Positions 6,207 through 42,833 of a DNA stretch of 64,000 bases are shown piece after piece. The stretch's first letter is position 1, and every line of letters begins with the position of its first letter. The DNA comes from Phyllobacterium sophorae. Its GTDB lineage: Bacteria > Pseudomonadota > Alphaproteobacteria > Rhizobiales > Rhizobiaceae. A model generated the notes under the pieces. That model saw only the letters and a list, made by a program, of their open reading frames with translations, searched no databases and was not told the DNA's origin. The stretch lies in assembly GCF_003010965.1 (NCBI RefSeq), contig NZ_PGGM01000015.1:1-64000 (forward strand). Reading direction: 5' to 3'. A program made the translations under genes and the position numbers.

Positions 6207-7136
6207 ATGTCGAAATCGGTAATTATCACCTGTGCGCCAACCGGGGGCATCCACACCCCGACGATGTCGGAGCACCTCCCAATCACGCCGTCGCAGATTG
6301 CGGCGGCCAGTATCGAAGCGGCCGAAGCAGGCGCTGCGATCATTCATCTCCATGCGCGCAACCCTGAGAACGGCAAGCCGGATCCGCGCCCTGACCTGTT
6401 CATGGAGTTCCTCCCGCGCATCAAGCAGTCGTGCAACGCGGTTCTCAACGTCTCCACGGGCGGGGGGCTGGGCATGACCCGAGAGGAGCGTCTTCTCGCC
6501 GCCACGAAGGCCAGCCCGGAAATGGCCTCCCTGAACGTCGGATCGATGAATTTCGGCATTTTCCCGATGTTGGAGAAGTATTCCAACTGGAAGCACTCCT
6601 GGGAGCCGGAATTTTTGGAGATGACGCGGGACTTCATCTTCCGGAACACCTTCGCCGACATCGAGTACACGGTGAAAGAGCTCGGCGAAGGGCATGGCAC
6701 CAAGTTCGAGTTCGAATGCTATGATCTGGGCCACCTCTACAACCTCGCCTGGATCGTGGACCAAGGTTGGGTGAAGCCGCCGTTTTTCGTGCAGATGGTG
6801 TTCGGGATCCTGGGCGGTGTCGGACCCGATCTCGACAACCTCATGCACATGCACACGATCGCCAACAAGCTGTTCGGTAACGACTACGAATGGTCGGTGC
6901 TGGCTGCCGGCCGTCATCAGATGCCGTTCACGACGCAGTCCGCGCTCCTGGGCGGAAACCTCCGGGTGGGCATGGAGGACAGTCTGTTCATCGGCCCCGG
7001 CGAAAAGGCGGTGTCGAGCGCCCAGCAGGTGCGCAAGATCAGATCGATCATAGAAAACCTTGGCCTAAAGGTCGCCACCGCTGACGAAGCGCGTGAGCGG
7101 CTCGGCCTCAAAGGCGGCGACAAGGTGACGTTCTGA
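6207..7136 (+). CDS. cdhC: Beta-keto acid cleavage enzyme (BKACE), probable 3-dehydrocarnitine cleavage
   Basis: This 309-residue TIM-barrel protein is of the DUF849/BKACE family. It starts with VIITCAPTGGIHTPTMS and has the zinc-ligand segment AAIIHLHARNP (His-x-His near residue 48). The ATTDEAR-type C-terminus (VATADEARERLGL) is typical. BKACE enzymes condense a beta-keto acid with acetyl-CoA to give acetoacetate and a new CoA ester. With 3-dehydrocarnitine the products are acetoacetate and betainyl-CoA. The neighbouring carnitine dehydrogenase and thioesterase support that substrate. Its stop overlaps the ATG of the aldehyde dehydrogenase by one base. Confidence 0.85.
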   Translation: MSKSVIITCAPTGGIHTPTMSEHLPITPSQIAAASIEAAEAGAAIIHLHARNPENGKPDPRPDLFMEFLPRIKQSCNAVLNVSTGGGLGMTREERLLAATKASPEMASLNVGSMNFGIFPMLEKYSNWKHSWEPEFLEMTRDFIFRNTFADIEYTVKELGEGHGTKFEFECYDLGHLYNLAWIVDQGWVKPPFFVQMVFGILGGVGPDLDNLMHMHTIANKLFGNDYEWSVLAAGRHQMPFTTQSALLGGNLRVGMEDSLFIGPGEKAVSSAQQVRKIRSIIENLGLKVATADEARERLGLKGGDKVTF

Positions 7137-8557
7137 TGCAGACCAACCTCTTTATCAACGGCGAGTTCGTCTCGGGCGAAGGCGAACCTCTTCCAATTCT
7201 CGATCCAGCTACGAGAACCGAGATCGTGACGATCAACGAGGCGACCAACGACCAGGTTGACGCTGCCGTAAGGGCCGCGGCTGCCGCGTTCGATCGGTTC
7301 TCGCGGACCACACCTGCCGAACGCTCCTCGCTTCTTCTGAAGATGGCGGACGTGCTTGAAACGCATAGCCAGGAGCTCGCCGAACTCGAGAGCCTGGACG
7401 TGGGCAAGCCCTGGCCGTCCGCGCACGACGACGAGATGCCGCTCACGATCGACGCGTTTCGTTTCTTCGCAGGGGCCGCTCGTACGATGATGGGTCCCGT
7501 CGCCGGGGAATACGTATCCGGCTATACGAGTATGATCCGCCGCGAGGCCGTCGGCCCTGTGGCGGCCATCACACCGTGGAACTATCCTCTGATGATGGCG
7601 TCCTGGAAGATCGCCGCGGCCATCGCGGCCGGATGCACGATCGTCCTGAAGCCTTCGGAGATCACACCTCTGTCCACATTGAAGACGGCGGAGTTATTCG
7701 CGGACCTTCTTCCAAAGGGCGTCTTCAACGTGGTCCACGGAAGAGGCGCATCGATCGGCGACAGGCTCATGAACGCCCCTGAGATCGAGGCGATCGCCGT
7801 GACGGGCTCGCCCGCTACCGGCATGGCTGCGATGCGCGCAGCCTCGCAGCAGATCAGGCACGTCCACCTGGAGCTCGGCGGCAAGTCCCCGGTGATCGTG
7901 TTTGACGATGCCGACGTCGAGGCTGTTGCACAGACCATCCGCTATGGGAGCTTCTTCAATGCCGGTCAGGATTGCGCGCAGCCGTGCAGGATCATTGCGC
8001 AGGATGGCATTTATAACGCGCTCGTAGCCGAGATCGCGCGCCAGGTCGCAGAGATTAAGGTTGGAGCCCAGAAGGCTGAAGGAACCCAGATGGGACCGGT
8101 CGTCTCCGCGAACCAGTTGGAGCGGGTCGCGGGCTTCGTGGACCGTGCGCGCGAAACTTGCGAGGTCGTAGTCGGCGGCGAGCGCCCGGATGGGCCGGGC
8201 TTTTTCTACAAACCGACCGTGATCGCGAATGTGAACCACGACTGCGAGATCGCCGCGAACGAAGTCTTCGGGCCGGTGATTACGATCTCGCGTTTTTCCA
8301 AGGTCGACGAGGCGTTGTCTGTCGCGAATGCCGGGCGCTACGGTCTGGCTTCATCGGTCTGGACGCGGGACATTGGCCGGGCGATGGACGTGACGAGCCG
8401 CCTCCGCTACGGCTTCACCTGGGTAAACACACACGGCGTTGCGACCCCGGAAATGCCCTGGGCGGCAATGAAGGGCTCGGGCACGGGCTGCGACATGTCC
8501 ATCCACGCGCTCGACGCATACACCTCGGTCCGCCACGTCATGGTTTCACACGGGTAA
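7136..8557 (+). CDS. NAD(P)-dependent aldehyde dehydrogenase, betaine-aldehyde-type
   Basis: A 473-residue class 3-like aldehyde dehydrogenase. It has the PWNYPLMMASWKIAAAIAAG cofactor segment, the general-base Glu in LELGGKSP, and the nucleophilic Cys in FNAGQDC. Its relatives oxidise betaine aldehyde, 4-trimethylaminobutyraldehyde and gamma-aminobutyraldehyde. In this operon it may handle an aldehyde released by the oxygenase, such as malic semialdehyde or betaine aldehyde. The ATG at 7136 overlaps the previous stop (TGATG), a sign of translational coupling. Confidence 0.85.
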   Translation: MQTNLFINGEFVSGEGEPLPILDPATRTEIVTINEATNDQVDAAVRAAAAAFDRFSRTTPAERSSLLLKMADVLETHSQELAELESLDVGKPWPSAHDDEMPLTIDAFRFFAGAARTMMGPVAGEYVSGYTSMIRREAVGPVAAITPWNYPLMMASWKIAAAIAAGCTIVLKPSEITPLSTLKTAELFADLLPKGVFNVVHGRGASIGDRLMNAPEIEAIAVTGSPATGMAAMRAASQQIRHVHLELGGKSPVIVFDDADVEAVAQTIRYGSFFNAGQDCAQPCRIIAQDGIYNALVAEIARQVAEIKVGAQKAEGTQMGPVVSANQLERVAGFVDRARETCEVVVGGERPDGPGFFYKPTVIANVNHDCEIAANEVFGPVITISRFSKVDEALSVANAGRYGLASSVWTRDIGRAMDVTSRLRYGFTWVNTHGVATPEMPWAAMKGSGTGCDMSIHALDAYTSVRHVMVSHG

Positions 8558-32986: not shown

Positions 32987-35050
32987 TCATCTTCCGCGAT
33001 CGCGATCCTTGGATTGTGGCGGCCGCACTTTGATGGTTCGGACCTTTTCTCTCGACTTCTCGGTCTTGTCATTTGATCGCTGGTGCTCCCGTTCGGCTGT
33101 TCGGTTGAGCGAACTGTGTTCTCGTTCCTCGTCTCTGCTGGCATGGTCTCGCGCCTGTACTGTCTGGCCGATGCGGCCGATATCTACCGTCTTGCGCGTA
33201 GATGTTTTCGGTTGCGCTTCGCGATCGTCGACACGGTCCTTGCCGCCTGCACTCTTTGTGCTCATCGCAGCCGACTGCGTGTCACGATCTTTAATCCGGG
33301 CATCGATACGGGAGTCGAGCTGCAGGTCGACCAGTTTGGTGATGACCTTGGCCGCTTTGCTGAAAGTTTCCCCATCGATCGGGTTAAGGTTGGTTGCGAC
33401 ATCGATGACGGCCTTGGCCACGCGCTCTTTAGCGATGTCGGCCTGGGATTGGGAGATGGGCGTTGTCCTGAGCATGTGTACTTCACCTCTTTCTAGAGCG
33501 GGGTCGCGACCGTCTCGGATAGCCGTTTCAAGACGATCATATTCGCGTGTGAGCCCGGTAAGCAGATCCTGGCTCAACTCGCGGGCCGTGCTGGATGCTG
33601 ACCGGTCTTTGCCCAAGCGATCGAGCATGCCAATGACGCGGTTCAGATTCTTCCTGGTGTCCTGGAACCGCGCGCGCGCGGCTTCGAGCTTTGGAGCCGT
33701 CGATTTGTCGTGGATCTTCGCGCGGACTTTGTCCGCCAGGGTTGCCGGGGAAGCGGCGCCCATGCGGTGGAACAGTTCCCATTCCCAGCGTTTGATCGGC
33801 GGTGGCCCGGCCCGATCGTTACGCTTTTGTGGCTCAAGTTGGATACCGCGCTCGCGGGCTTTTTCGGCGAAGCGCATCCGCCATTCGGTGAAGTCGCGGA
33901 TGTTCGGGTGCAGACGATTGCCACGCGAATCCCGCAAGGCGACAATGACGTGAAGATGGGGGTGCTTGGATTTGTCGTCGCGATTGTGAACCGCATAAGC
34001 ATAGCGGTGTGTGCCGAACTGCGAGCGCAGGAAAGCCGCACCGGCTTTGACGAATCGGTCGCGGTCAATGGCGGCGGGTCCGGAAATCAGCAGGTGCATG
34101 AAGTCGCGGCTCTGGTTGGTGTACATTAAGGATGCAATGGTTGCACTTTCCCGCGTAAGGTCCTTGCGGTCGCTCGTGGTAACGCTACGCCGGACAGGAC
34201 CGCGCTCATACTGGCCGGCACTATCTTCCCGATCCTTGATGCGGGTTTTGGTCGAGATCGTCACTGCAGCACCACCGCGCATCATTGCGTGCAGCGTGGC
34301 GCTCAGGCCCTTCCGTCCGGATGCGGTTTTAGCCTGATACCGCGATACCGGCTCAATGCCTTCGTCGCGTAGAAAGCCGTCGATACGGCGATCGATCTTG
34401 TGGATCGAATCGAGTGTTGGATTTAGTCGGCTAACTTTGTTTTTGTCAGCACGGCTCTGCTTTTCATGGGCAATAATGAGGGCGAGCGTCAGCCGCGTCT
34501 GATCGTTAACGCCCGGACTGGTGCTAAAGGCGTATGAGCGTTCGGTATCGCCCTGATCGTGGAACCCCTCGCTGGCGGCGCGTTCAAGCGCGCGGTTGAC
34601 CTTCTCACGGTCAGCATTGTTTAGCTCGTAGCTAAGAACAAGAATATCCTTCGAGCCTTCCCGCCCTTCGAACTCCCGGCTCCAGTCCTCAATGGCTCTC
34701 TCGATGTCGGCGACTTCGCGGCCATTATGGTCAATCGCCTTTTCTTCCTTGGCCTGATAGGTGAGGACATTGCGGGCGGAACTGGCGCCGGCACCGTAAC
34801 TCAAGACCTTGAGTACGACGGCGTTGTTGCCTTGCGCACGGCTCACGGCAGTCGCGACGCCGAAGTTGTGCGCCGCGCGCTGTGACGGTATTGCAGGGGA
34901 GCCGAGAGGGCGCTTGCCGCCGCCGTTCGATCCACTTCCGCCGCCGCCGCCACGACTACGGCGTTTGTCCTCGATGTTCTCGAAATAGGTCGGCAATGCC
35001 CGGTTGGCCGCCTCAATACGCGAAAGAAGTTTGGACGGGCTCTTGGTCAT
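32987..35050 (-). CDS. Relaxase/mobilization nuclease, VirD2/MobP type
   Basis: This relaxase has about 687 residues from the ATG at 35050; an in-frame ATG at 35134 would give 715 but adds a low-complexity segment overlapping the accessory gene. The relaxase core has motif III as HNRDDKSKHPHLHVIVAL (HxD plus HxHxH), which binds the metal at the nick site, and NQSRDFMHLLISGP upstream of it. A Gly/Ser-rich linker near the N-terminus and a charged coiled C-terminal half follow. The last residues, RTIKVRPPQSKDRDRGR, are basic like a type IV secretion signal and recur at the end of the Fic protein. Confidence 0.82.
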   Translation of the reverse strand: MTKSPSKLLSRIEAANRALPTYFENIEDKRRSRGGGGGSGSNGGGKRPLGSPAIPSQRAAHNFGVATAVSRAQGNNAVVLKVLSYGAGASSARNVLTYQAKEEKAIDHNGREVADIERAIEDWSREFEGREGSKDILVLSYELNNADREKVNRALERAASEGFHDQGDTERSYAFSTSPGVNDQTRLTLALIIAHEKQSRADKNKVSRLNPTLDSIHKIDRRIDGFLRDEGIEPVSRYQAKTASGRKGLSATLHAMMRGGAAVTISTKTRIKDREDSAGQYERGPVRRSVTTSDRKDLTRESATIASLMYTNQSRDFMHLLISGPAAIDRDRFVKAGAAFLRSQFGTHRYAYAVHNRDDKSKHPHLHVIVALRDSRGNRLHPNIRDFTEWRMRFAEKARERGIQLEPQKRNDRAGPPPIKRWEWELFHRMGAASPATLADKVRAKIHDKSTAPKLEAARARFQDTRKNLNRVIGMLDRLGKDRSASSTARELSQDLLTGLTREYDRLETAIRDGRDPALERGEVHMLRTTPISQSQADIAKERVAKAVIDVATNLNPIDGETFSKAAKVITKLVDLQLDSRIDARIKDRDTQSAAMSTKSAGGKDRVDDREAQPKTSTRKTVDIGRIGQTVQARDHASRDEEREHSSLNRTAEREHQRSNDKTEKSREKVRTIKVRPPQSKDRDRGR

Positions 35051-35411
35051 GGCGCTCGATAAGCATGGCAATGAGAGGGGAGGGGCGAGGGGAGGCGGCG
35101 CTGCGGATGGCTTCGATCGTTTGCGACTGCTCATTTAATTCTGCGATGATTTGGTGAACACCCGAACGCTTTTCCGGATCGTCCATTTCCTCCAGATAGT
35201 CTTCCAGCGTCGCCACCAGGTCGCGGTGGAACTGCTGGATTTCCTGCAGCGCCTGGTCATGCGCGTCGAGCAGCGCAGGGATGTGTAAAACCTCGCGCAC
35301 AACGATCAGTTTGGCGATGCTGCCGGGTGTGGTCCTGAAGCGTTTCGCCAGGGCTTGCAGATCGTTCGCGACCGAGTGACTGACACGGAAGAATATTCGG
35401 GGGTTTGGCAT
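35013..35411 (-). CDS. Mobilization accessory protein (MobC-like)
   Basis: A 132-residue protein that begins with a ribbon-helix-helix-like segment (MPNPRIFFRVSHSVANDLQA) and continues as a helical, acidic coiled coil. It overlaps the relaxase gene start, the usual arrangement for relaxosome accessory proteins that bind oriT DNA. Family assignment is by context and fold only. Confidence 0.65.
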   Translation of the reverse strand: MPNPRIFFRVSHSVANDLQALAKRFRTTPGSIAKLIVVREVLHIPALLDAHDQALQEIQQFHRDLVATLEDYLEEMDDPEKRSGVHQIIAELNEQSQTIEAIRSAASPRPSPLIAMLIERHDQEPVQTSFAY

Positions 35412-35413
35412 AG

Positions 35414-35824
35414 TCAGAGCAACTTTCTGGATTCCAGCGCTTCCCTGAGCAGGCGATACACCGTCTTAGTCGGGATCTCGCGGTACTGCTGCGATAATCC
35501 CCACACTTGGGATAGTAGCGGTTCGGTCAAGCGCAAGGTCAGTCGAGCATGTGCCGCATCGGTACGCTCAACACCTTCCGCATAATCTTTCACACGGCTT
35601 TGTGCCGCCGATCTTTTGGGTGGCCCGGCGTTTGCGCGATCAGGTGCGACTTGCTTATGTTCTTTCTTGGCGAAGTAGGCTGCAGCCTGTGAAGGTGGCG
35701 TGAAGGCAAGACCGGGATCGTCTCCAGCCGCAATCCTCACATCAGGCACCAACGGCGCACGACGTTTTCTGGCAAATTGCAGGATGCTGTTGTCCGGGAT
35801 CGCTTCATCGCTCTCCTCATTCAT
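35414..35824 (-). CDS. Small DNA-binding plasmid protein
   Basis: A 136-residue protein. A basic N-terminal half precedes a C-terminal ARLTLRLTEPLLSQVWGLSQ segment suited to a ribbon-helix-helix fold. It sits two bases from the accessory mobilization gene and overlaps the ParA-like gene (ATGA). It may be the ParB/VirC2-like partner of the ATPase. Function is inferred from position. Confidence 0.55.
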   Translation of the reverse strand: MNEESDEAIPDNSILQFARKRRAPLVPDVRIAAGDDPGLAFTPPSQAAAYFAKKEHKQVAPDRANAGPPKRSAAQSRVKDYAEGVERTDAAHARLTLRLTEPLLSQVWGLSQQYREIPTKTVYRLLREALESRKLL

Positions 35825-36588
35825 GTCTGCGCCTCCCTCAGGAGTTGGACGATTTCATTGTTGAGGATTTTGACGCCTTCAATCGCGCCGTAAACGGGCT
35901 CAAGCGCCTTCCGCCTCAATGACGGAGTCAGCTTCGGGTTATTTTCGAATTGGGCGCGCCAGTCATAGAGGGTACCCCAACCGGCCGCGACACGGGCATA
36001 GTAGTCACGGGTCTTGATAATGGGCTTGGCCAAGGGAAATTTTGCGTTGACCAGGATCTTGGCCGTTTCAGCTACGGCCGGCGAATTGACATTGAAGGGA
36101 TGAAGGTTATTGAAAATCGCCTTGTAGGGGATCACCGGCCGTTGCATCTCTTTGGCGTTGGTCTCAAGTATGCTCCGGATCGCCATAGCTTGTGTGGCGG
36201 AAGTCGCCTCGTTGATGACGGGAATGAGAACAGCGTCACATTGTTTGTAGACTTCGACTGCCCTGTCATGGAAAAAGCCGCCCACGTCAAAGAGACGTAT
36301 ATCGCTGGCCGGTAGCGCAGCCACAGCAGCGTGAAAGTCATTGGCAGCGGAAATGGCCGTAAGACCGATGCCCTTAAGCCTGTAACCACGCTGCCGCGAG
36401 ACCGTATGCCATCTCGTTGTGGATTGTTGTTCATCACAATCGACGACATGGACAGTGGCGCCCTGCTGGGCAAATTCAGCCGCGATCAAGCTGGTCAAGA
36501 CCGACTTGCCGACACCACCCTTGAGGTTGGTGATGGCGAGCGTCAACCCGGCTGCGTTGTCATGGTTGGTATCAGGTCTGGCGTTCAC
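35821..36588 (-). CDS. ParA/VirC1-like ATPase
   Basis: A 255-residue P-loop ATPase with a deviant Walker A (NLKGGVGKSVLTS), a CDEQQSTTRW switch and LFDVGGFF. ParA proteins segregate plasmids; the related VirC1 recruits the relaxosome to the transfer machinery. Its four-gene unit with relaxase and accessory proteins favours a VirC1-like role. Repeats resembling a centromere or transfer origin lie just upstream. Confidence 0.8.
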   Translation of the reverse strand: MNARPDTNHDNAAGLTLAITNLKGGVGKSVLTSLIAAEFAQQGATVHVVDCDEQQSTTRWHTVSRQRGYRLKGIGLTAISAANDFHAAVAALPASDIRLFDVGGFFHDRAVEVYKQCDAVLIPVINEATSATQAMAIRSILETNAKEMQRPVIPYKAIFNNLHPFNVNSPAVAETAKILVNAKFPLAKPIIKTRDYYARVAAGWGTLYDWRAQFENNPKLTPSLRRKALEPVYGAIEGVKILNNEIVQLLREAQT

Positions 36589-36663
36589 GTGATCAGCTTC
36601 CGTGCGATTGCAGATGGGCGGACTTGAACGAGCTTGGTGTATCGTTGATGACTTTAAAAACTA

Positions 36664-36675
36664 ACACTAGAGTGT
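36664..36675. promoter_or_regulatory. Small inverted repeat upstream of the ParA-like gene
   Basis: ACACT and AGTGT face each other across two bases, about 75 bp upstream of the ParA-like start, beside an AT-rich hexamer. It could be an operator for self-regulation. Confidence 0.3.
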
Positions 36676-36719
36676 GATAATTCGATTTGCGCGAAGACGC
36701 AACCCTGTTTCGGTTTTCA

Positions 36720-36935
36720 GTTAATCAGAAATCAAGAGTTTGAGAGTCCGCGAATTTCGGAATCTGAAAAATTGAGCTTCTGTGAGTCCGAAAGTGTCAG
36801 AGTTACAGAATCCCTGACTTTGAAACTCTGAGACTCTGATAGATTGAGAGTTTGAGAATCTGAAAGTCAGAGACTCTGGGAGTTGCGGAGTCTGAGAGTT
36901 TCAGAGTCTGGGAGTCTGATAATTTCGCCTGCAAA
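36720..36935. repeat. Degenerate short tandem repeats (GAGTCTGA-like)
   Basis: Some twenty imperfect copies of CTGAGAGTTT/GAGTCTGA occur at roughly 8-12 bp spacing, for example GAGTCTGAGAGTTTCAGAGT. The run is clearly repetitive by eye and lies upstream of the ParA-like gene. Iterons, a centromere or an oriT accessory region are possible. Confidence 0.65.
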
Positions 36936-37048
36936 CAGTTCTTGCTTACATTTGGAAAATCGCAGTTCTCGCGAACTGTCGGCGGAGCACTTTTTATCGC
37001 CCCGCGGGCGAAACGCACATCTGGCACCAGAAGTGCTATCCTGCCATT

Positions 37049-37167
37049 TATAAGCCTATAGGCGCGAACTCTTTCCCAAGCGATCAGACCAAGGTGAATA
37101 CCAAGCACGTTGGTGAGCCGTAGGTCGGCTTGGAATCAGATAGATGCGCGACGGTCATAGGCTTATA
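37049..37167. repeat. Pair of 11-bp inverted repeats about 100 bp apart
   Basis: TATAAGCCTAT at 37049-37059 is exactly inverted as ATAGGCTTATA at 37157-37167. The interval contains a smaller inverted repeat (ACCAA-GCACG-TTGGT). It is a candidate cis site for transfer or recombination. Confidence 0.5.
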
Positions 37168-37557
37168 GGTCAGAAGTGAGCTGTTGTCCCGAGCGTCACG
37201 ATGAAAACCAGACACCAGAGTGGGGTTGGTTTGAGATGGTGCGACGGGAAGAAACGGCGAACGCAACGCAGATGATCACCCAAATGAAACGAGCCGGAAG
37301 CATGACAGGCGATGCGAAATGACAGGCTTGATCATCGACCTGAGTTTGAAAGTCGCGGCAGCGTCCATCCAAGGAGCCCCGAAAGGCCGCCCGGCAAAGC
37401 CTCAAAAAGGAGAGGGGTGATTGATGGGAGAGGCGGCTAGTCTCGCCCCTCAAGGCGGCGGAATGCGTTCGATGCGCGTGAGCAGCCAAGAGGAGAAGAT
37501 GCGAGGCAAGCGGACAATCGCCCTCTTGCCTCGCATAGTTTTACTAGCTGTGTGTTG

Positions 37558-37773
37558 TCAGCTATCGTCGAAACACCAGTCCGGCAGATCGCCCTCAGCA
37601 TGCCCGCAATCGCTGCAGGCAAGCGCGCTATACTGGTTGATCGAGCCGCCTTCGCAGCACTCCCAATACCTTTGAACAGCACTGCCCTGGCAGGCGGGAC
37701 ACTTCACGGTTACCGTATCGTCCTCCAGCTCTATGCCACCGGGTTCGATGCAGCCGCCGTATACTATGGTCAT
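37558..37773 (-). CDS. Small zinc-ribbon protein
   Basis: A 71-residue protein with two CxxC-type knuckles (CPAC about residue 25 and CSDC about 53) plus a CC pair, consistent with a zinc ribbon. CAGGAG stands before the ATG. Such proteins are frequent in plasmid leading regions; function is unknown. Confidence 0.65.
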   Translation of the reverse strand: MTIVYGGCIEPGGIELEDDTVTVKCPACQGSAVQRYWECCEGGSINQYSALACSDCGHAEGDLPDWCFDDS

Positions 37774-37846
37774 GTCGATCTCCTGTCATGAAGAAAGGCT
37801 CCTGCGGTTAAGCAAAAGCCTTGGGACAAAGCGGCGAGGGAGCGGA

Positions 37847-38143
37847 TCAGTCGTCCGCCGTGAAGCCGATGCGCGCAAGCACCTTTTCCGGTGCAGTGAC
37901 ACAATCATCGTGCCAATCCGGATGCGTGGCGCAAGCGCGGGCAAAATGCGCGATGGTCGAGGAAGAGGTGTTCGGCAAGCCCTTGTAACCGATGTGCATG
38001 TAGTCCTTCTCCAGGGCGGCAGCGCAACCGCGATTGCCAGCACCGCAATAATCGGAGATGGGCTTTGGAACGGGATTGTTGATGGTATGATTGGCGGACA
38101 AGCCAACTGACAAAAGTGCGATAGCAATGAGGATGATTTTCAT
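37847..38143 (-). CDS. Small exported cysteine-containing protein
   Basis: A 98-residue protein with an N-terminal signal peptide (MKIILIAIALLSVGLSANHT) and four cysteines in the mature part, possibly two disulfides. AAAGGA precedes the ATG at 38143; a longer frame upstream lacks family features. A periplasmic protein of unknown function. Confidence 0.6.
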   Translation of the reverse strand: MKIILIAIALLSVGLSANHTINNPVPKPISDYCGAGNRGCAAALEKDYMHIGYKGLPNTSSSTIAHFARACATHPDWHDDCVTAPEKVLARIGFTADD

Positions 38144-38168
38144 GGTCGGATCCTTTGAATGAGAGGGA

Positions 38169-38540
38169 TTAGGCATTGATGTAGCCAAGCCAGCGAGCCT
38201 CGGCGGCGTAACCATTCAAGCTCTTTTGGGCGATGAACGTGGTATCGCGGTCGGCCCTGATGCCGAGCGGTCCAATGGCCGTCAGTAGATCACTGACCGC
38301 CACGTAGCCGATTTCCGGACACCCGAGGCCAAGATCACAGAGGCCAAAGAGCAGGCCCTCCTTTTCGTCGAATTCGGTAATCAGCCAGACCGCAGCAGAT
38401 GTTGGAAGGAACAATTTAACCACAGGCCGCAGATCAACCGATGGGTTGTCCACAAGCGCAGCGCGCTCATTCACCAGATGATTATCCTTCAACCGTGCCA
38501 AAGCCTCGGCCGGAATCAGGTTAGTGATTGTAAGTGTCAT
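38169..38540 (-). CDS. DUF2958 family plasmid protein
   Basis: A 123-residue protein. VKLFLPTSAAVWLITEFDE and GLCDLGLGCPEIGYVAVSDL are the hallmarks of DUF2958, which is widespread on conjugative plasmids of alphaproteobacteria near ArdC and DUF736 genes. A GGAGAAAAT site precedes the ATG at 38540. Its role is not known. Confidence 0.78.
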   Translation of the reverse strand: MTLTITNLIPAEALARLKDNHLVNERAALVDNPSVDLRPVVKLFLPTSAAVWLITEFDEKEGLLFGLCDLGLGCPEIGYVAVSDLLTAIGPLGIRADRDTTFIAQKSLNGYAAEARWLGYINA

Positions 38541-39145
38541 GATTTTCTCCTTCGTCTCGATGACGAAAGTCCCCAAACTTTTCACGACGAGAGGGTCAAG
38601 GACCGCGAAGCGGCGGCCACGCCGGGAACGGGGGAACCGATTTTTCAGGAACCGCGCGCAGCGCAGGGCATGGAAAAATTGGGGGCGACCGTTCCTCCTT
38701 GAGGCGCGAGGAGGGAAAAGTAGACTGGGAAGTCATAGAGAGAGGGAACCACGCCCGCGACAAGCGGGCGTGTCCGTACCCGGTCGGCAGGCCGGCAATG
38801 CCATTGCAAAGAAACACCAGCTCGCAGGAGGAGGAGCTGGTGCTAGCTGGCCGGGTGCAAACGAGCAGCTCGGCTGGGGGGAACAGGAGGATGGATAAAG
38901 TGTCTCAGAAAGCCAGCATCTGTGCAAACCCGTACGCGCTGCTATACATGGTGATTCCACAGATAATGCAGCCAATGAGCGCTTCGACCCGTTCGGCGAA
39001 GGTGACTTTCCGATCCGGGTTTGACTAGTGCTGCCTACGAATTTTCATGAGTGTTGCATTGTCCGTGAATAGCTCGCCGGTAACATGTCGCCGGATCGTG
39101 GCCGGGAATTGTAGGCGAATTGTTGGAACGGCCAAACCCTGCCCA
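38541..39145. other. Gap without a supported gene
   Basis: On the minus strand a frame from 39024 to 38905 reads like a small membrane protein (EALIGCIICGITM, SSAYGFAQM) but is preceded in frame by a TAG at 39027-39025 and has no start, so it may be a dead small gene. The rest is GC-rich leader DNA. Confidence 0.35.
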
Positions 39146-40096
39146 TCAGCGGCCGCGATCGTGGTTCTTTGACTTCGGCGGAGCCACTTTGACAGTGCGG
39201 GTCTTGTTCGACTTTTCCTGAGGCTTGTTGTCCTGCTCGATTGTCTTGACAGGCTCCTTGACGACAATGTTGATGCGGTCATTGTTTGCCGGCGCCTTGT
39301 CAAAATTGGCAAGCGCGACGGCCTTGACGTCGCGCCCCTGCGCAACAAGGACATTTTTGTAGCTGGTCGCCAGGACCTGGCCGCGCACATTTTCGCCGAC
39401 AGAGGGAATGGCGATCGGTGGTTTTCCCATCAGCTTCAAGACCTGGCCTGCCTCTTCACCAAGATGGCCAATGGTCGGATGATTACGTTCGAGTGCAGTT
39501 TCACGCGCTTCGACAAGCATGTTTGTCAGTTCCCTCAGATCGCCGACAGTCGCCTTGGCAAAGATATCTCGCGTTTCAGAGGGATAGCGGGCAGTAACGG
39601 AACGGTCGAGGTCGAAACCGCGCTCGCTCGCGTACTGGTGCATGAAGACGGACGTCGTGCGGGTATTGCCCTCACGAAAGGCATGAGCCTGCCAGACCTT
39701 TGCCATGATCTGGCCGAAGACCTTGGCGGCAGCGGCTTTGTTGTTATCGTCCCATTTGAATGTCTTGAGCGGCTTGGTGTACTCGCCCAGCATCTCGTCC
39801 AGAAACTCCGCTTTCCCGTATTTGACGGATTTGCCGCCCAATACCGGCTCCACCTTGCTGAGATTGATGGTGCGGTTCTGGCCCGCGAACGGATAAATCT
39901 TTTCGAAGATGCGTTTGTGTATTTCCTTCAGATGCGACCCGTCAAACTCACCTTTGACGGGGTTCTTCCGAAGATCATCCAACGCAATAGCTGTTACAAT
40001 CTGTTCCCTTGTATCAAGCTTGGACTTGTCCTGCTCGTTGAACAGGTTCTTCAGGACATTGGTGCCGGGATAGACGTAAGGATCGCCGTTGCTCAT
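39146..40096 (-). CDS. Fic-domain protein with relaxase-like C-terminal tail
   Basis: A 316-residue protein with a Fic domain at about residues 15-185. The active-site loop reads HAFREGNTRTTSVF, keeping the catalytic His and first Arg but with Thr for the second Gly and Ser where the second Arg of AMP-transferring Fic proteins stands. An inhibitory helix is not obvious. After a linker, the last residues are RTVKVAPPKSKNHDRGR, nearly the tail of the relaxase encoded at 32987-35050. This suggests export with the relaxase as a secreted effector. A small gene overlaps upstream by one base. Confidence 0.82.
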   Translation of the reverse strand: MSNGDPYVYPGTNVLKNLFNEQDKSKLDTREQIVTAIALDDLRKNPVKGEFDGSHLKEIHKRIFEKIYPFAGQNRTINLSKVEPVLGGKSVKYGKAEFLDEMLGEYTKPLKTFKWDDNNKAAAAKVFGQIMAKVWQAHAFREGNTRTTSVFMHQYASERGFDLDRSVTARYPSETRDIFAKATVGDLRELTNMLVEARETALERNHPTIGHLGEEAGQVLKLMGKPPIAIPSVGENVRGQVLATSYKNVLVAQGRDVKAVALANFDKAPANNDRINIVVKEPVKTIEQDNKPQEKSNKTRTVKVAPPKSKNHDRGR

Positions 40097-40380
40097 TAGG
40101 CGGCACGCGCCTTGCGTGCCGCCGCTTCAAGATCGACGAAGATCATTGATTCATCAACAGAGAGTATGTTGCGCGTGTTAACGAGATAGCAGGCCATCGT
40201 GAAGGGGCGCATGTCGTTGCCGGAACCGCGCATGATGGCAAACACGCCCTCGTCATCAGGCGTGGTCATACCCCGGATCATCGGCGCGAAGACGCCTTCG
40301 TCAAGCGTACGAAAATACTTTTCGAACAGTTCGACGGCTTCTTCTTTGGTGGCAATGACAGTTGAGAATTCAGCGTCCAT
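40096..40380 (-). CDS. Small protein coupled to the Fic gene, possible antitoxin or chaperone
   Basis: A 94-residue protein whose TAA overlaps the Fic ATG (TAATG), the arrangement of FicA antitoxins with FicT toxins. It contains TPDDEG, which fits the (S/T)xxxE(G/N) inhibitory pattern, but the Pro and the mixed alpha/beta look differ from the purely helical FicA/VbhA family. A secretion chaperone or unrelated leading-region protein is also possible. The ATG at 40380 is chosen since the frame upstream carries no family signal. Confidence 0.55.
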   Translation of the reverse strand: MDAEFSTVIATKEEAVELFEKYFRTLDEGVFAPMIRGMTTPDDEGVFAIMRGSGNDMRPFTMACYLVNTRNILSVDESMIFVDLEAAARKARAA

Positions 40381-40522
40381 GACAGGTCTCCGTGAGGCTG
40401 TTTTATAGCATACGAGACCAGAAAAGTCAAGGTTTTCCGTGGTTTGCGGGCGTTCAAGCTGCGCCATTGTCTTGTTCCTTTCCGTGGAACAATGCCTTTT
40501 TGTGCGGTGCAATCAAGAGGAT

Positions 40523-40557: not shown

Positions 40558-40884
40558 TTAGTTCTCGCCGGGGTTCCAGATCATGACGTATTCGTCTTCC
40601 TTGCCGCCGGGCGCCTGTGCGATGTTGGCGAAGATCTTGCCGAATTCGGGGGCGGTGAGGGACACGGAAATGTAGTCCTTGCCGCTGGTCTTCGAAGTGC
40701 GGGTCCAGGCGGCGCCGACTTCAAAGCCGTTCTTCGTAGCGATGACGCGGAAGTCGGGTTCGTCGCTGCCATCCTTCTTGGTGCGGTTTTCGAGGACGGC
40801 GATCGGAGCCTTGATCGTCAGGGTGGAGAGGGTGCCGCGGAAGCCGTTTTCGGTGCGGGAGAGGGTTGCGAGTGTGGAAGCCAT
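40558..40884 (-). CDS. DUF736 family plasmid protein
   Basis: A 108-residue protein of the DUF736 family (GTLSTLTIKAPIAVLEN, FRVIATKNGFEVGAAW, YISVSLTAPEF), a near-universal marker of alphaproteobacterial plasmids and integrative elements. It is usually highly expressed; a GGAGAT ribosome site precedes the ATG. Role unknown, but its single-gene unit with a strong terminator fits a leading-region gene. Confidence 0.85.
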   Translation of the reverse strand: MASTLATLSRTENGFRGTLSTLTIKAPIAVLENRTKKDGSDEPDFRVIATKNGFEVGAAWTRTSKTSGKDYISVSLTAPEFGKIFANIAQAPGGKEDEYVMIWNPGEN

Positions 40885-41855: not shown

Positions 41856-42281
41856 TCAGCGCGTGCGGTCAACACGCCCCTTCTTGCTGCGTATGGTCAC
41901 AAGAGCGGCGGCCTGCACCTTTTTCAGAAAGGGGCGGCTGAACCGGCCTTGCGGTGGACTGTTGATGGGAAAATCCCATGACTGTTCAAGGATATCGTAA
42001 TTGTATTCCGAAACAGTAATCCAGCCCCGCTTCGCATCGGTCAGTCCGGCCCGTTTCAATTCGAGTTGCGGGATTTCGATTGCCGTCTGGTCGGCTGTCG
42101 GCGGTGTGCCGGAAATAGCAAGCATGACGAGATGGGTAAGATTTTGCGCATCGTTCCTGAAGGTCAAGGCAACACAGGCCGGACGATCCTTTTCCCCTTC
42201 ATCACGCCCAAGGTCGCGTTGCCATTTCCACAAATAGGCATACCGGACAATGTGGCCTTCCTTATACTGGTCAATCGTCAT
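41856..42281 (-). CDS. Probable PemK/MazF-like toxin
   Basis: A 141-residue protein. GHIVRYAYLWKWQRDLGRDE, RPACVALTF and HLVMLAISGTPP resemble the opening strands of the PemK/MazF endoribonuclease fold, with a long C-terminal extension. It overlaps the upstream Phd/YefM-type antitoxin gene by 11 bases, the normal toxin-antitoxin order. Assignment is moderate: similarity is by eye. Confidence 0.55.
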   Translation of the reverse strand: MTIDQYKEGHIVRYAYLWKWQRDLGRDEGEKDRPACVALTFRNDAQNLTHLVMLAISGTPPTADQTAIEIPQLELKRAGLTDAKRGWITVSEYNYDILEQSWDFPINSPPQGRFSRPFLKKVQAAALVTIRSKKGRVDRTR

Positions 42282-42531
42282 AGTCGGACGAACCGTCGTT
42301 AATGCGCTGTTCAAGTTCTGTCGCGAGCATGTCAGCCAGTTCCGACGGTGTTTCACCAACGCCATAAACGCGGCGGGGTCGGCCGCGTCCCTGCATCTTT
42401 TCGTAATCCTCAATACTCATCAGAACGAAGCGAGGCTTTCGGTGCTGCGTGATCGTGACCGGCTCCTTGCTGGCAACATGGGTTACAGTGCCGATTTGCT
42501 GCGTGAGTTCGACGGTGCTAAATGTCCGCAT
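42271..42531 (-). CDS. Phd/YefM-family antitoxin
   Basis: An 86-residue protein with MRTFSTVELTQQIGTVTHVA and PVTITQHRKPRFVLMSIEDY, the standard Phd/YefM DNA-binding domain, then an acidic C-terminus that would bind the toxin. It overlaps the downstream toxin gene and likely represses the pair. Confidence 0.8.
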   Translation of the reverse strand: MRTFSTVELTQQIGTVTHVASKEPVTITQHRKPRFVLMSIEDYEKMQGRGRPRRVYGVGETPSELADMLATELEQRINDGSSDYDD

Positions 42532-42563
42532 GGCAGAACCTTTCTGCTGATAATTCAGAATAT

Positions 42564-42833
42564 CTATATATTCCATATATTCCAAATAAGCAAGAATGGT
42601 CGTGGTCTTGCACGCTGCAACTCGATCGCGTCAACGATAATGCGAAAAGCCCGATTGATCGGCACTGCCTGATTGTCTCCGCCGAACAGTGCGGCGAACA
42701 AATCGCCGTCAACCGGCATTTTGAAAGCCGTGCAAATTGCGACAATATAGTTGTCGAGCATTTCGCCGCTGATCAACAGGCCGCCATCTTCAGCCTGTTC
42801 ATAAGATGCTGGATCGAAGTGGATGTAGGCCAT
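42564..42833 (-). CDS. Hypothetical protein, possibly 5'-truncated
   Basis: From the ATG at 42833 it encodes 89 residues. The same frame stays protein-like for about 70 codons upstream to 43046 (GIDADCVAKTGYVYAGDTYI, LLIERSDWISSDLDQLEAIL), yet contains no ATG, GTG or TTG before an in-frame TAG. The intact ancestor probably began upstream, so this may be a decayed gene or one restarted internally. Family not recognised. Confidence 0.45.
   Translation of the reverse strand: MAYIHFDPASYEQAEDGGLLISGEMLDNYIVAICTAFKMPVDGDLFAALFGGDNQAVPINRAFRIIVDAIELQRARPRPFLLIWNIWNI

What the first reader, a model, noticed from the sequence alone, without database searches (positions are those of the whole stretch)
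32987..40096. Relaxase and Fic protein share the same C-terminal tail
The relaxase ends RTIKVRPPQSKDRDRGR and the Fic protein ends RTVKVAPPKSKNHDRGR, within similar EKS-rich surroundings, although the rest of the proteins are unrelated and lie 4 kb apart. Basic C-terminal tails are export signals for VirB/D4-type secretion. The Fic protein may be a conjugation-delivered effector acting in recipient cells.
Basis: partly seen in the sequence, partly recalled or inferred. Interest (0 to 1): 0.85.

Follow-up and report, generated by a model that had tools for sequence, protein, structure and literature searches.

The report
Toxin wearing the relaxase's export tag
On a rhizobial plasmid, a toxin-like enzyme ends in the same short tag as the protein that pilots the plasmid's DNA into another cell, which suggests that the toxin is shipped into recipient bacteria during mating.

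Summary
The relaxase (32987-35134, -) and the Fic protein (39146-40096, -) share their last ~31 residues (17 of 31 identical, BLASTP E 8e-6). A search of the 6.35-Mb genome found no third copy. The resemblance recurs. In six distinct replicons holding both relatives, the Fic is the best tail match of all 167-626 ORFs scored. In a more distant Fic/relaxase group with a different tail, the Fic ranks first on 9 of 10 contigs, several near-identical. A third Fic group, ~42% identical in its FIC domain, carries a BID domain instead, as do relaxases beside it. The relaxase tail is conserved behind a variable linker. A VirB/D4-type secretion system lies on the same contig. Best reading: the tail is the relaxase's type IV secretion signal, and the Fic has acquired it and is delivered during conjugation, like VbhT of Bartonella but with a short tail in place of BID. 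Translocation is untested. Such cases were anticipated in print (PMC5675462); my searches found none described. New variant of a known kind.

The parts
32987..35134 (-). relaxase, 715 aa as the longest ORF (MobA/VirD2-like)
   Evidence: PF03432 E 3.4e-8, 34.3 bits against cut-off 24.6; relatives 48-84% identical in rhizobia. The six-frame search of the own genome with PF03432 did not list it.
32987..33040 (-). relaxase C-terminal tail RTIKVRPPQSKDRDRGR plus stop
   Evidence: last 17 columns 0.83 mean conservation against 0.59 for the 40 before, in 44 relaxases
39146..40096 (-). Fic protein, 316 aa: FIC domain, a small beta region, disordered linker, tail
   Evidence: PF02661 E 3.2e-10; phmmer best solved relative VbhT 3shg E 2.5e-17; AlphaFold model, mean pLDDT 69.5, residues 1-18, 68-95 and 287-316 below 50; Foldseek best hit VbhT
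39146..39199 (-). Fic C-terminal tail RTVKVAPPKSKNHDRGR plus stop
40096..40467 (-). candidate antitoxin, 123 aa from ATG (138 aa from an upstream TTG); its stop overlaps the Fic start by one base
   Evidence: similar ORFs upstream of the Fic in relatives (three aligned, 23 and 30% identical); sequence of the junction; no Pfam match for the protein without its first residue
35821..36588 (-). ParA-type ATPase near the relaxase (relaxosome recruitment of VirC1 type suggested)
   Evidence: PF01656 5.6e-10, VirC1 0.0017 below its cut-off
35414..35824 (-). small ORF between ParA and relaxase; order kept in two annotated relatives
35013..35411 (-). small ORF overlapping the start of the longest relaxase ORF; order kept in two annotated relatives
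38169..38585 (-). DUF2958 protein between relaxase and Fic, as on pAtCFBP4996b
   Evidence: PF11171 4.3e-28
40558..40884 (-). DUF736-like ORF upstream of the candidate antitoxin (same order as on pAtCFBP4996b and in P. zundukense)
   Evidence: by position and resemblance by eye to annotated DUF736 genes; not run through Pfam

Best explanation
The last ~17-30 residues are the C-terminal signal by which this plasmid's coupling protein (VirD4) picks its substrates. The relaxase uses it to pilot the plasmid strand through the VirB/D4-type channel. The Fic toxin has acquired the same signal behind a disordered linker, so it is exported through the same channel and reaches recipient cells with, or alongside, the DNA. 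In the donor it is kept silent by the 123-aa protein encoded just upstream, and in the recipient it modifies a target until the incoming plasmid makes that protein. Shown here: the shared tail, its conservation at the end of the relaxase family, its match within replicons, the secretion genes on the same contig, the FIC fold. Inferred: recognition by VirD4, transfer, silencing by the upstream protein, and any benefit to the plasmid.
For: Tail shared, two places only in the genome. VirB4, VirB6, VirB8, VirB9, VirB10, VirB11 and VirD4 homologues on the same contig at C6:119853-132482. Fic ranks first of all ORFs by tail match in 6 of 6 distinct replicons of its own group and on 9 of 10 contigs of the second group. 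Tails match by group: 10 of 200,000 random pairings reach the observed total. Relaxase tail conserved (0.83) after a variable stretch (0.59) in 44 relaxases. A Fic group ~42% identical in its FIC domain has a BID domain in 2 of 2 members tested, and 2 of 2 relaxases tested from that group's contigs have it too. All 4 genomes of 297 with this Fic group hold this relaxase on the same contig, while it is full-length in 8 of 394 genomes searched. VbhT, the nearest solved relative, is a shown conjugation-delivered toxin with a relaxase-like signal (PMC5675462).
Against: No translocation data. Finer matching within a group is weak: 14 of 720 pairings reach the observed total in the first group and 86 of 120 in the second; two relaxase tails of the first group fit another plasmid's Fic better than their own. 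In the second group the G205 Fic ranks only 4th of 230, and the G120 Fic leads by little (35 against 32); in G017, where a relaxase of another kind lies near a Fic, the tails do not match (rank 13 of 135). Pairs inherited together are not independent. MOB-suite calls pAtCFBP4996b and the Phyllobacterium plasmid non-mobilizable. The upstream protein resembles no known antitoxin in Pfam. The Fic lacks the second arginine of the FIC motif (HAFREGNTRTTS), so its chemistry, and hence toxicity, is uncertain.
Confidence: 0.75

Rival explanations
1. The tail docks both proteins to a common partner in the donor (VirD4, the ParA/VirC1-like protein or the relaxosome) without export of the Fic: the Fic would modify the transfer machinery and control mating in the donor.
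For: Fic and relaxase genes lie close together with a ParA gene between them, as on pAtCFBP4996b; a C-terminal docking motif predicts the same sequence pattern.
Against: The alternative signal, BID, is a demonstrated secretion signal (PMC5675462) and is used in the same way by a related Fic group.
Confidence: 0.13
2. An ordinary plasmid-stabilising toxin-antitoxin pair whose 3' end was overwritten by relaxase sequence through recombination; the tail has no function on the Fic.
For: Coding-tail DNA is 38/54 identical; the Fic is dispensable, since on a Phyllobacterium plasmid the upstream protein is kept but tblastn finds only the first 33 residues of the Fic.
Against: The tail is kept at the exact C-terminus of the Fics of this group in six distinct replicons, behind a variable linker, and a second group keeps a different tail that mostly matches its own relaxase.
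Confidence: 0.09
3. Chance resemblance of two basic, low-complexity ends.
For: The tails are short and charged.
Against: E 8e-6; rank 1 in 8 of 8 contigs of its group, and among 8,694 ORFs scored no non-Fic ORF reaches the lowest Fic score.
Confidence: 0.02

Closest known systems
VbhT of Bartonella schoenbuchensis pVbh (FIC-BID interbacterial effector)
   Same: FIC toxin encoded with a conjugative type IV secretion system; its C-terminal signal is that of the plasmid's own relaxase (PMC5675462); nearest solved relative by sequence and fold
   Different: signal here is a ~17-30 residue basic tail, no BID domain found; upstream partner has no VbhA match; FIC motif lacks the second arginine; transfer not shown
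FicT of Methylorubrum extorquens DM4 p1METDI (BID-like extension)
   Same: named in PMC5675462 (section 10) as a candidate conjugation-delivered Fic; the match on NC_012987.1 is 40.8% identical to the window's Fic over 95% of it
   Different: carries a BID-like extension according to that paper, which I did not test here
Agrobacterium VirB/D4 substrates with arginine-rich C-terminal signals (VirF, VirE2, VirD2; MobA)
   Same: short, positively charged C-terminal signal, sufficient in fusions (PMC10025392, passages)
   Different: those fusions were moved into plants or yeast; no sequence relation to this tail was tested
X-T4SS antibacterial effectors with XVIPCD
   Same: bacterial toxins addressed by a C-terminal domain to VirD4 (PMC10025392, passages)
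   Different: ~120-residue domain and a killing system, not conjugation

Membership tests
VbhT-type FIC-BID interbacterial effector | FIC domain related to FicT/VbhT | tested here: met
   Pfam Fic, phmmer VbhT E 2.5e-17, Foldseek best hit VbhT, E 1.4e-6, TM 0.65 by target
VbhT-type FIC-BID interbacterial effector | C-terminal BID domain | tested here: not met
   Pfam finds only Fic in the window protein and in three relatives of its group; BID is found in 2 of 2 members tested of the BID-bearing group
VbhT-type FIC-BID interbacterial effector | signal shared with the relaxase of the same plasmid | tested here: met
VbhT-type FIC-BID interbacterial effector | cognate VbhA-type antitoxin upstream | tested here: not met
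   the upstream protein has no Pfam match at E up to 1; VbhA is found upstream in 2 of 2 members tested of the second Fic group
VbhT-type FIC-BID interbacterial effector | conjugative T4SS on the same replicon | tested here: met
   VirB4/6/8/9/10/11 and VirD4 on contig C6; VirB2, VirB3, VirB5 and VirB7 not tested
VbhT-type FIC-BID interbacterial effector | T4SS-dependent transfer into recipients | not testable with these tools
   needs a mating assay
MobA/VirD2-like relaxase (PF03432) | nuclease domain over the curated cut-off | tested here: met
   34.3 bits against 24.6; histidines of HPHxH invariant in 4 aligned sequences; but not listed in the six-frame genome search
MobA/VirD2-like relaxase (PF03432) | nicking at a cognate oriT | not tested
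   no oriT search made
VirB/D4 arginine-rich C-terminal signal | positively charged C-terminal end | tested here: met
   both tails end in DRGR within 17 residues rich in K and R (read by eye)
VirB/D4 arginine-rich C-terminal signal | exact Arg consensus of Vergunst 2005 (R-X7-R-X-R-X-R, recalled) | tested here: inconclusive
   by eye the relaxase tail has R-X6-R-X-R-X-R and the Fic tail fewer; the paper is not held
VirB/D4 arginine-rich C-terminal signal | sufficient to move a fusion protein | not testable with these tools
   needs a reporter assay

The most novel reading that the evidence does not exclude
The relaxase tail is a readable address: Fic toxins have been re-addressed at least three times (basic PP tail, acidic-basic DRDDR tail, BID domain) so as to match the relaxase of whatever conjugation system carries them, and other toxins can join, as the zeta-type kinase wedged before the Fic in G015 suggests. 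Comparing every protein end with the cognate relaxase end would then reveal conjugation-delivered toxins generally, including for systems with short signals that have been considered difficult to predict.
Probability: 0.48. Interest if true: 0.75.

Novelty: new variant of a known kind. Interest (0 to 1): 0.63.

Why it matters
Toxins injected alongside plasmid DNA are known mainly where the signal is a recognisable BID domain; the authors of PMC5675462 wrote that most systems have only very short basic signals that are notoriously difficult to predict, and expected more such toxins. This case suggests that the signal can be read by comparison with the relaxase of the same replicon, gives ready pairs for assays in harmless laboratory strains, and raises the question why plasmids send a toxin ahead of, or with, themselves.

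Tried and rejected
Chance: rejected by ranks. Recent duplication: rejected, DNA 38/54 in the tail and 12/60 after it. Tail as a common plasmid protein end: the Fic-tail query found no match in 72,556 plasmids, two relaxase-tail queries found 34 and 45 places, which by coordinates all coincide with relaxase matches. These searches are weak evidence of absence: none of them found the Fic tail of pAtCFBP4996b, which is in the collection. A third tail-bearing protein on this contig: a motif scan of ORFs of 60 residues or more gave only two short frames (67 and 64 aa) besides the pair; the ORF at 41856-42413 (ends GRVDRTR) had no Pfam match. The first genome-contig scan, with the Fic, confirmed no relative. 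A query with the second group's Fic tail found nothing in plasmids, possibly because of the low-complexity filter. Fine covariation inside the second group: not found.

Rows left out or against: of the second group, 7 contigs were ranked and three more (G120, G165, G205), with Fic and relaxase on separate fetched stretches of one contig: Fic first in 9 of 10, 4th of 230 in G205. G003, G153, G014, G204 and G054 are near-identical to each other in both tails, so the 10 contigs are far fewer independent cases. For G198, G202, G096 (two), G142, G257 and G193 my BLASTP found no relaxase on the stretches fetched. For G017, G189 (two) and G195 profile searches had flagged a relaxase on the contig that my BLASTP missed: in G017 it is another kind and the tails do not match (rank 13 of 135); in both G189 contigs no complete ORF covers the hit, and in G195 only short frames do, so these three were not testable. 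Near-identical pairs (G003, G153, G204, G054, G120) were dropped from the pairing test, which used 5 of the second group and 6 of the first. Of the six BID-group loci (L039-L044) one, L042, is a short frame of 252 aa with another end; BID was tested in two Fics and two relaxases, with L040 the only locus where both were tested. The zeta tail in G015 fits the motif but not the ranking list, so it is only suggestive. Structure: one AlphaFold job from 4 sequences, so details of the beta region are uncertain.

Changes made on re-checking: the misses above and the insensitivity of the tail searches were added, and confidence lowered from 0.77 to 0.75 for that reason; a count of VbhA-like ORFs was corrected from 16 (also in notebook entry 4) to 15.
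Full report
Check of the observation. Compared with each other, their only significant match is the end: 17 of 31 residues identical, E 8e-6. In the own genome (6,354,559 bases, 49 contigs; the window is contig C6, bases 1-64000) a search with the Fic's last 29 residues found these two places only. The coding DNA of the two tails is 38/54 identical, but only 12/60 positions agree after the stop codons: the likeness is old and confined to the protein end.

What the two proteins are. The relaxase matches PF03432 (E 3.4e-8) and the Fic PF02661 (E 3.2e-10); the six-frame search of the genome with PF03432 did not list the relaxase, so it is a divergent member. Relatives covering at least 80% of it sit on 47 plasmid records, mostly of Rhizobium and Agrobacterium, the closest in Phyllobacterium zundukense at 83.7%. 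The nearest solved relative of the Fic is VbhT of Bartonella schoenbuchensis (E 2.5e-17), also the best fold match of an AlphaFold model; the model's tail, residues 287-316, is unstructured (pLDDT below 50). Outside the window the same contig encodes homologues of VirB4, VirB6, VirB8, VirB9, VirB10, VirB11 and VirD4 at C6:119853-132482.

The tail belongs to the relaxase family. In 44 relaxases (the 41 loci plus G015, pAtCFBP4996b and the window) the last 17 alignment columns have a mean conservation of 0.83, against 0.59 for the 40 columns before. By my reading of that list, 40 of 44 keep the two prolines; L119, L129 and L137 deviate at one of them and L127 ends differently. A consensus-like relaxase tail searched in 72,556 plasmids gave 45 places in 45 records, all of which coincide by coordinates with the relaxase matches. 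The search is not sensitive to diverged tails: it did not find the Fic tail of pAtCFBP4996b.

The Fic matches its own relaxase elsewhere too. Six distinct replicons with a relative of this Fic and of this relaxase were examined: the window, Ensifer sp. LCM 4579 (G045 = L099), pAtCFBP4996b of Agrobacterium leguminum (L096), a Mesorhizobium chromosome (L102), G015 and Mesorhizobium denitrificans (G188 = L133). That G045 is L099 and G188 is L133 I infer from equal contig lengths and sequences. In each the Fic is the best tail match of all ORFs of 50 residues or more (167-626 per contig; Fic 46-76, next 27-37); among 8,694 ORFs on 46 contigs no other reaches 46. In 297 genomes of the family this Fic group was found in 4, the window's included, and all 4 have the relaxase on the same contig, which is full-length in 8 of 394 genomes. 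The two samples of genomes overlap but are not the same.

A second and a third address. More distant Fics (24-31% identical) end in another tail, such as ..RNRDQDDRER, and their relaxases in ..RERNRDDRDR or similar. The Fic is the best tail match on 7 of 7 contigs (43-58; next at most 34), five of them near-identical. Three further contigs, checked on re-reading, give first rank in G120 (35 against 32) and G165 (43 against 32) but only 4th of 230 in G205: 9 of 10 in all. In G017, where a relaxase of another kind lies near a Fic, there is no match (rank 13 of 135); G189 and G195 could not be tested. A third group, ~42% identical to the window's Fic in the FIC domain, carries a BID domain in 2 of 2 members tested, and 2 of 2 relaxases tested from that group's contigs do as well, together with a MobA/MobL nuclease domain. 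So the catalytic part stays while the C-terminal signal tends to follow the relaxase.

How strong is the pairing? Over 11 pairs, 10 of 200,000 random pairings reach the observed sum of tail scores; this mostly reflects the two tail types. Within the first type 14 of 720 pairings do, and within the second 86 of 120, so there is at best weak finer matching. Against the reading: the relaxase tails of G045 and pAtCFBP4996b score better with the Mesorhizobium L102 Fic (67, 71) than with their own (42, 49). Pairs that travel together are not independent observations.

The gene next door. The stop codon of a 123-aa ORF overlaps the Fic start by one base; similar ORFs stand upstream of the Fic in relatives, two of them aligned at 23 and 30% identity. 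It has no Pfam match, whereas two of two tested in the second group have a VbhA antitoxin there (PF18495, 8.6e-18 and 3.7e-10). I take it as the antitoxin by position only. On a Phyllobacterium zundukense plasmid whose neighbouring DNA is 81.5-91.5% identical in the larger pieces, this ORF is kept, but tblastn finds only the first 33 residues of the Fic there, and the relaxase still ends in RTIKVRPPRSKEGERDR. The tail therefore does not depend on the Fic, and the Fic is an optional passenger. In G015 a zeta-type kinase (PF06414, 3e-6) sits directly before the Fic and ends in LSLQPPSPDHGRS, possibly a second tagged toxin.

How it most likely works. VirD4 recognises the tail; the relaxase brings the DNA strand, and the Fic crosses by the same route; the upstream protein keeps the Fic in check in the donor. 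Recognition, transfer and toxicity are inference. What the protein does in the recipient is open: the FIC motif reads HAFREGNTRTTS, without the second arginine (the canonical motif is recalled), so ordinary AMP transfer cannot be assumed.

Comparison with what is known. VbhT is secreted by a conjugative system, and its BID domain is virtually identical to that of its plasmid's relaxase; the same paper lists a Fic of M. extorquens with a BID-like end and a PezT toxin with a BID domain, and says that most systems have only very short, positively charged signals that are difficult to predict, so that more such toxins are to be expected (PMC5675462: abstract, passages and section 10). Basic C-terminal signals of VirB/D4 substrates are reviewed in PMC10025392 (passages). 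In the searches (open PubMed Central papers only; listings of at most 20 papers each seen) I saw no paper on a Fic that shares a short tail with its relaxase. The window's Fic fails the BID and VbhA features, so I do not file it as a VbhT-type FIC-BID protein; it works like one.

Verdict. Real, repeated and functionally suggestive; a new variant of a known kind, with the decisive mating test still to be done.

Noticed in passing
L045-L085 (19 loci of Fics with extensions), e.g. L067:6359-6565 and 6619-7695: In 17 of 19 Fics the FIC motif has Glu or Gln where the second Arg is canonical (recalled), and in 15 of 15 VbhA-like upstream ORFs found the position that I take for the inhibitory Glu is Gln (RQG or HQG): both sides of the known toxin-antitoxin contact seem changed together. 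The two Fics that keep Arg (L048, L085) showed no such ORF; nor did L078 and L083.
   Followed up: partly
L037:10395-11027: Zeta-toxin-like kinase directly before the Fic in G015, ending in a PP tail resembling that of the relaxase.
   Followed up: partly
L188:7527-7980: Phyllobacterium plasmid with the upstream ORF kept but only the first 33 residues of the Fic detected.
   Followed up: partly
G015:C2:139337-139552 (L171): Open frame of 83 aa matching only the last 76 positions of the relaxase model, near a large transposase-like ORF (by eye); perhaps a captured relaxase 3' end.
   Followed up: no
41856-42585: Small ORF pair that by eye looks like a Phd-type antitoxin with a partner ending in basic GRVDRTR; no Pfam match for the partner.
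   Followed up: no
NZ_CP120214.1 and NZ_CP017941.1: PLSDB's MOB-suite typing calls these plasmids non-mobilizable although they carry a relaxase of this family, so the typing seems to miss it there.
   Followed up: no
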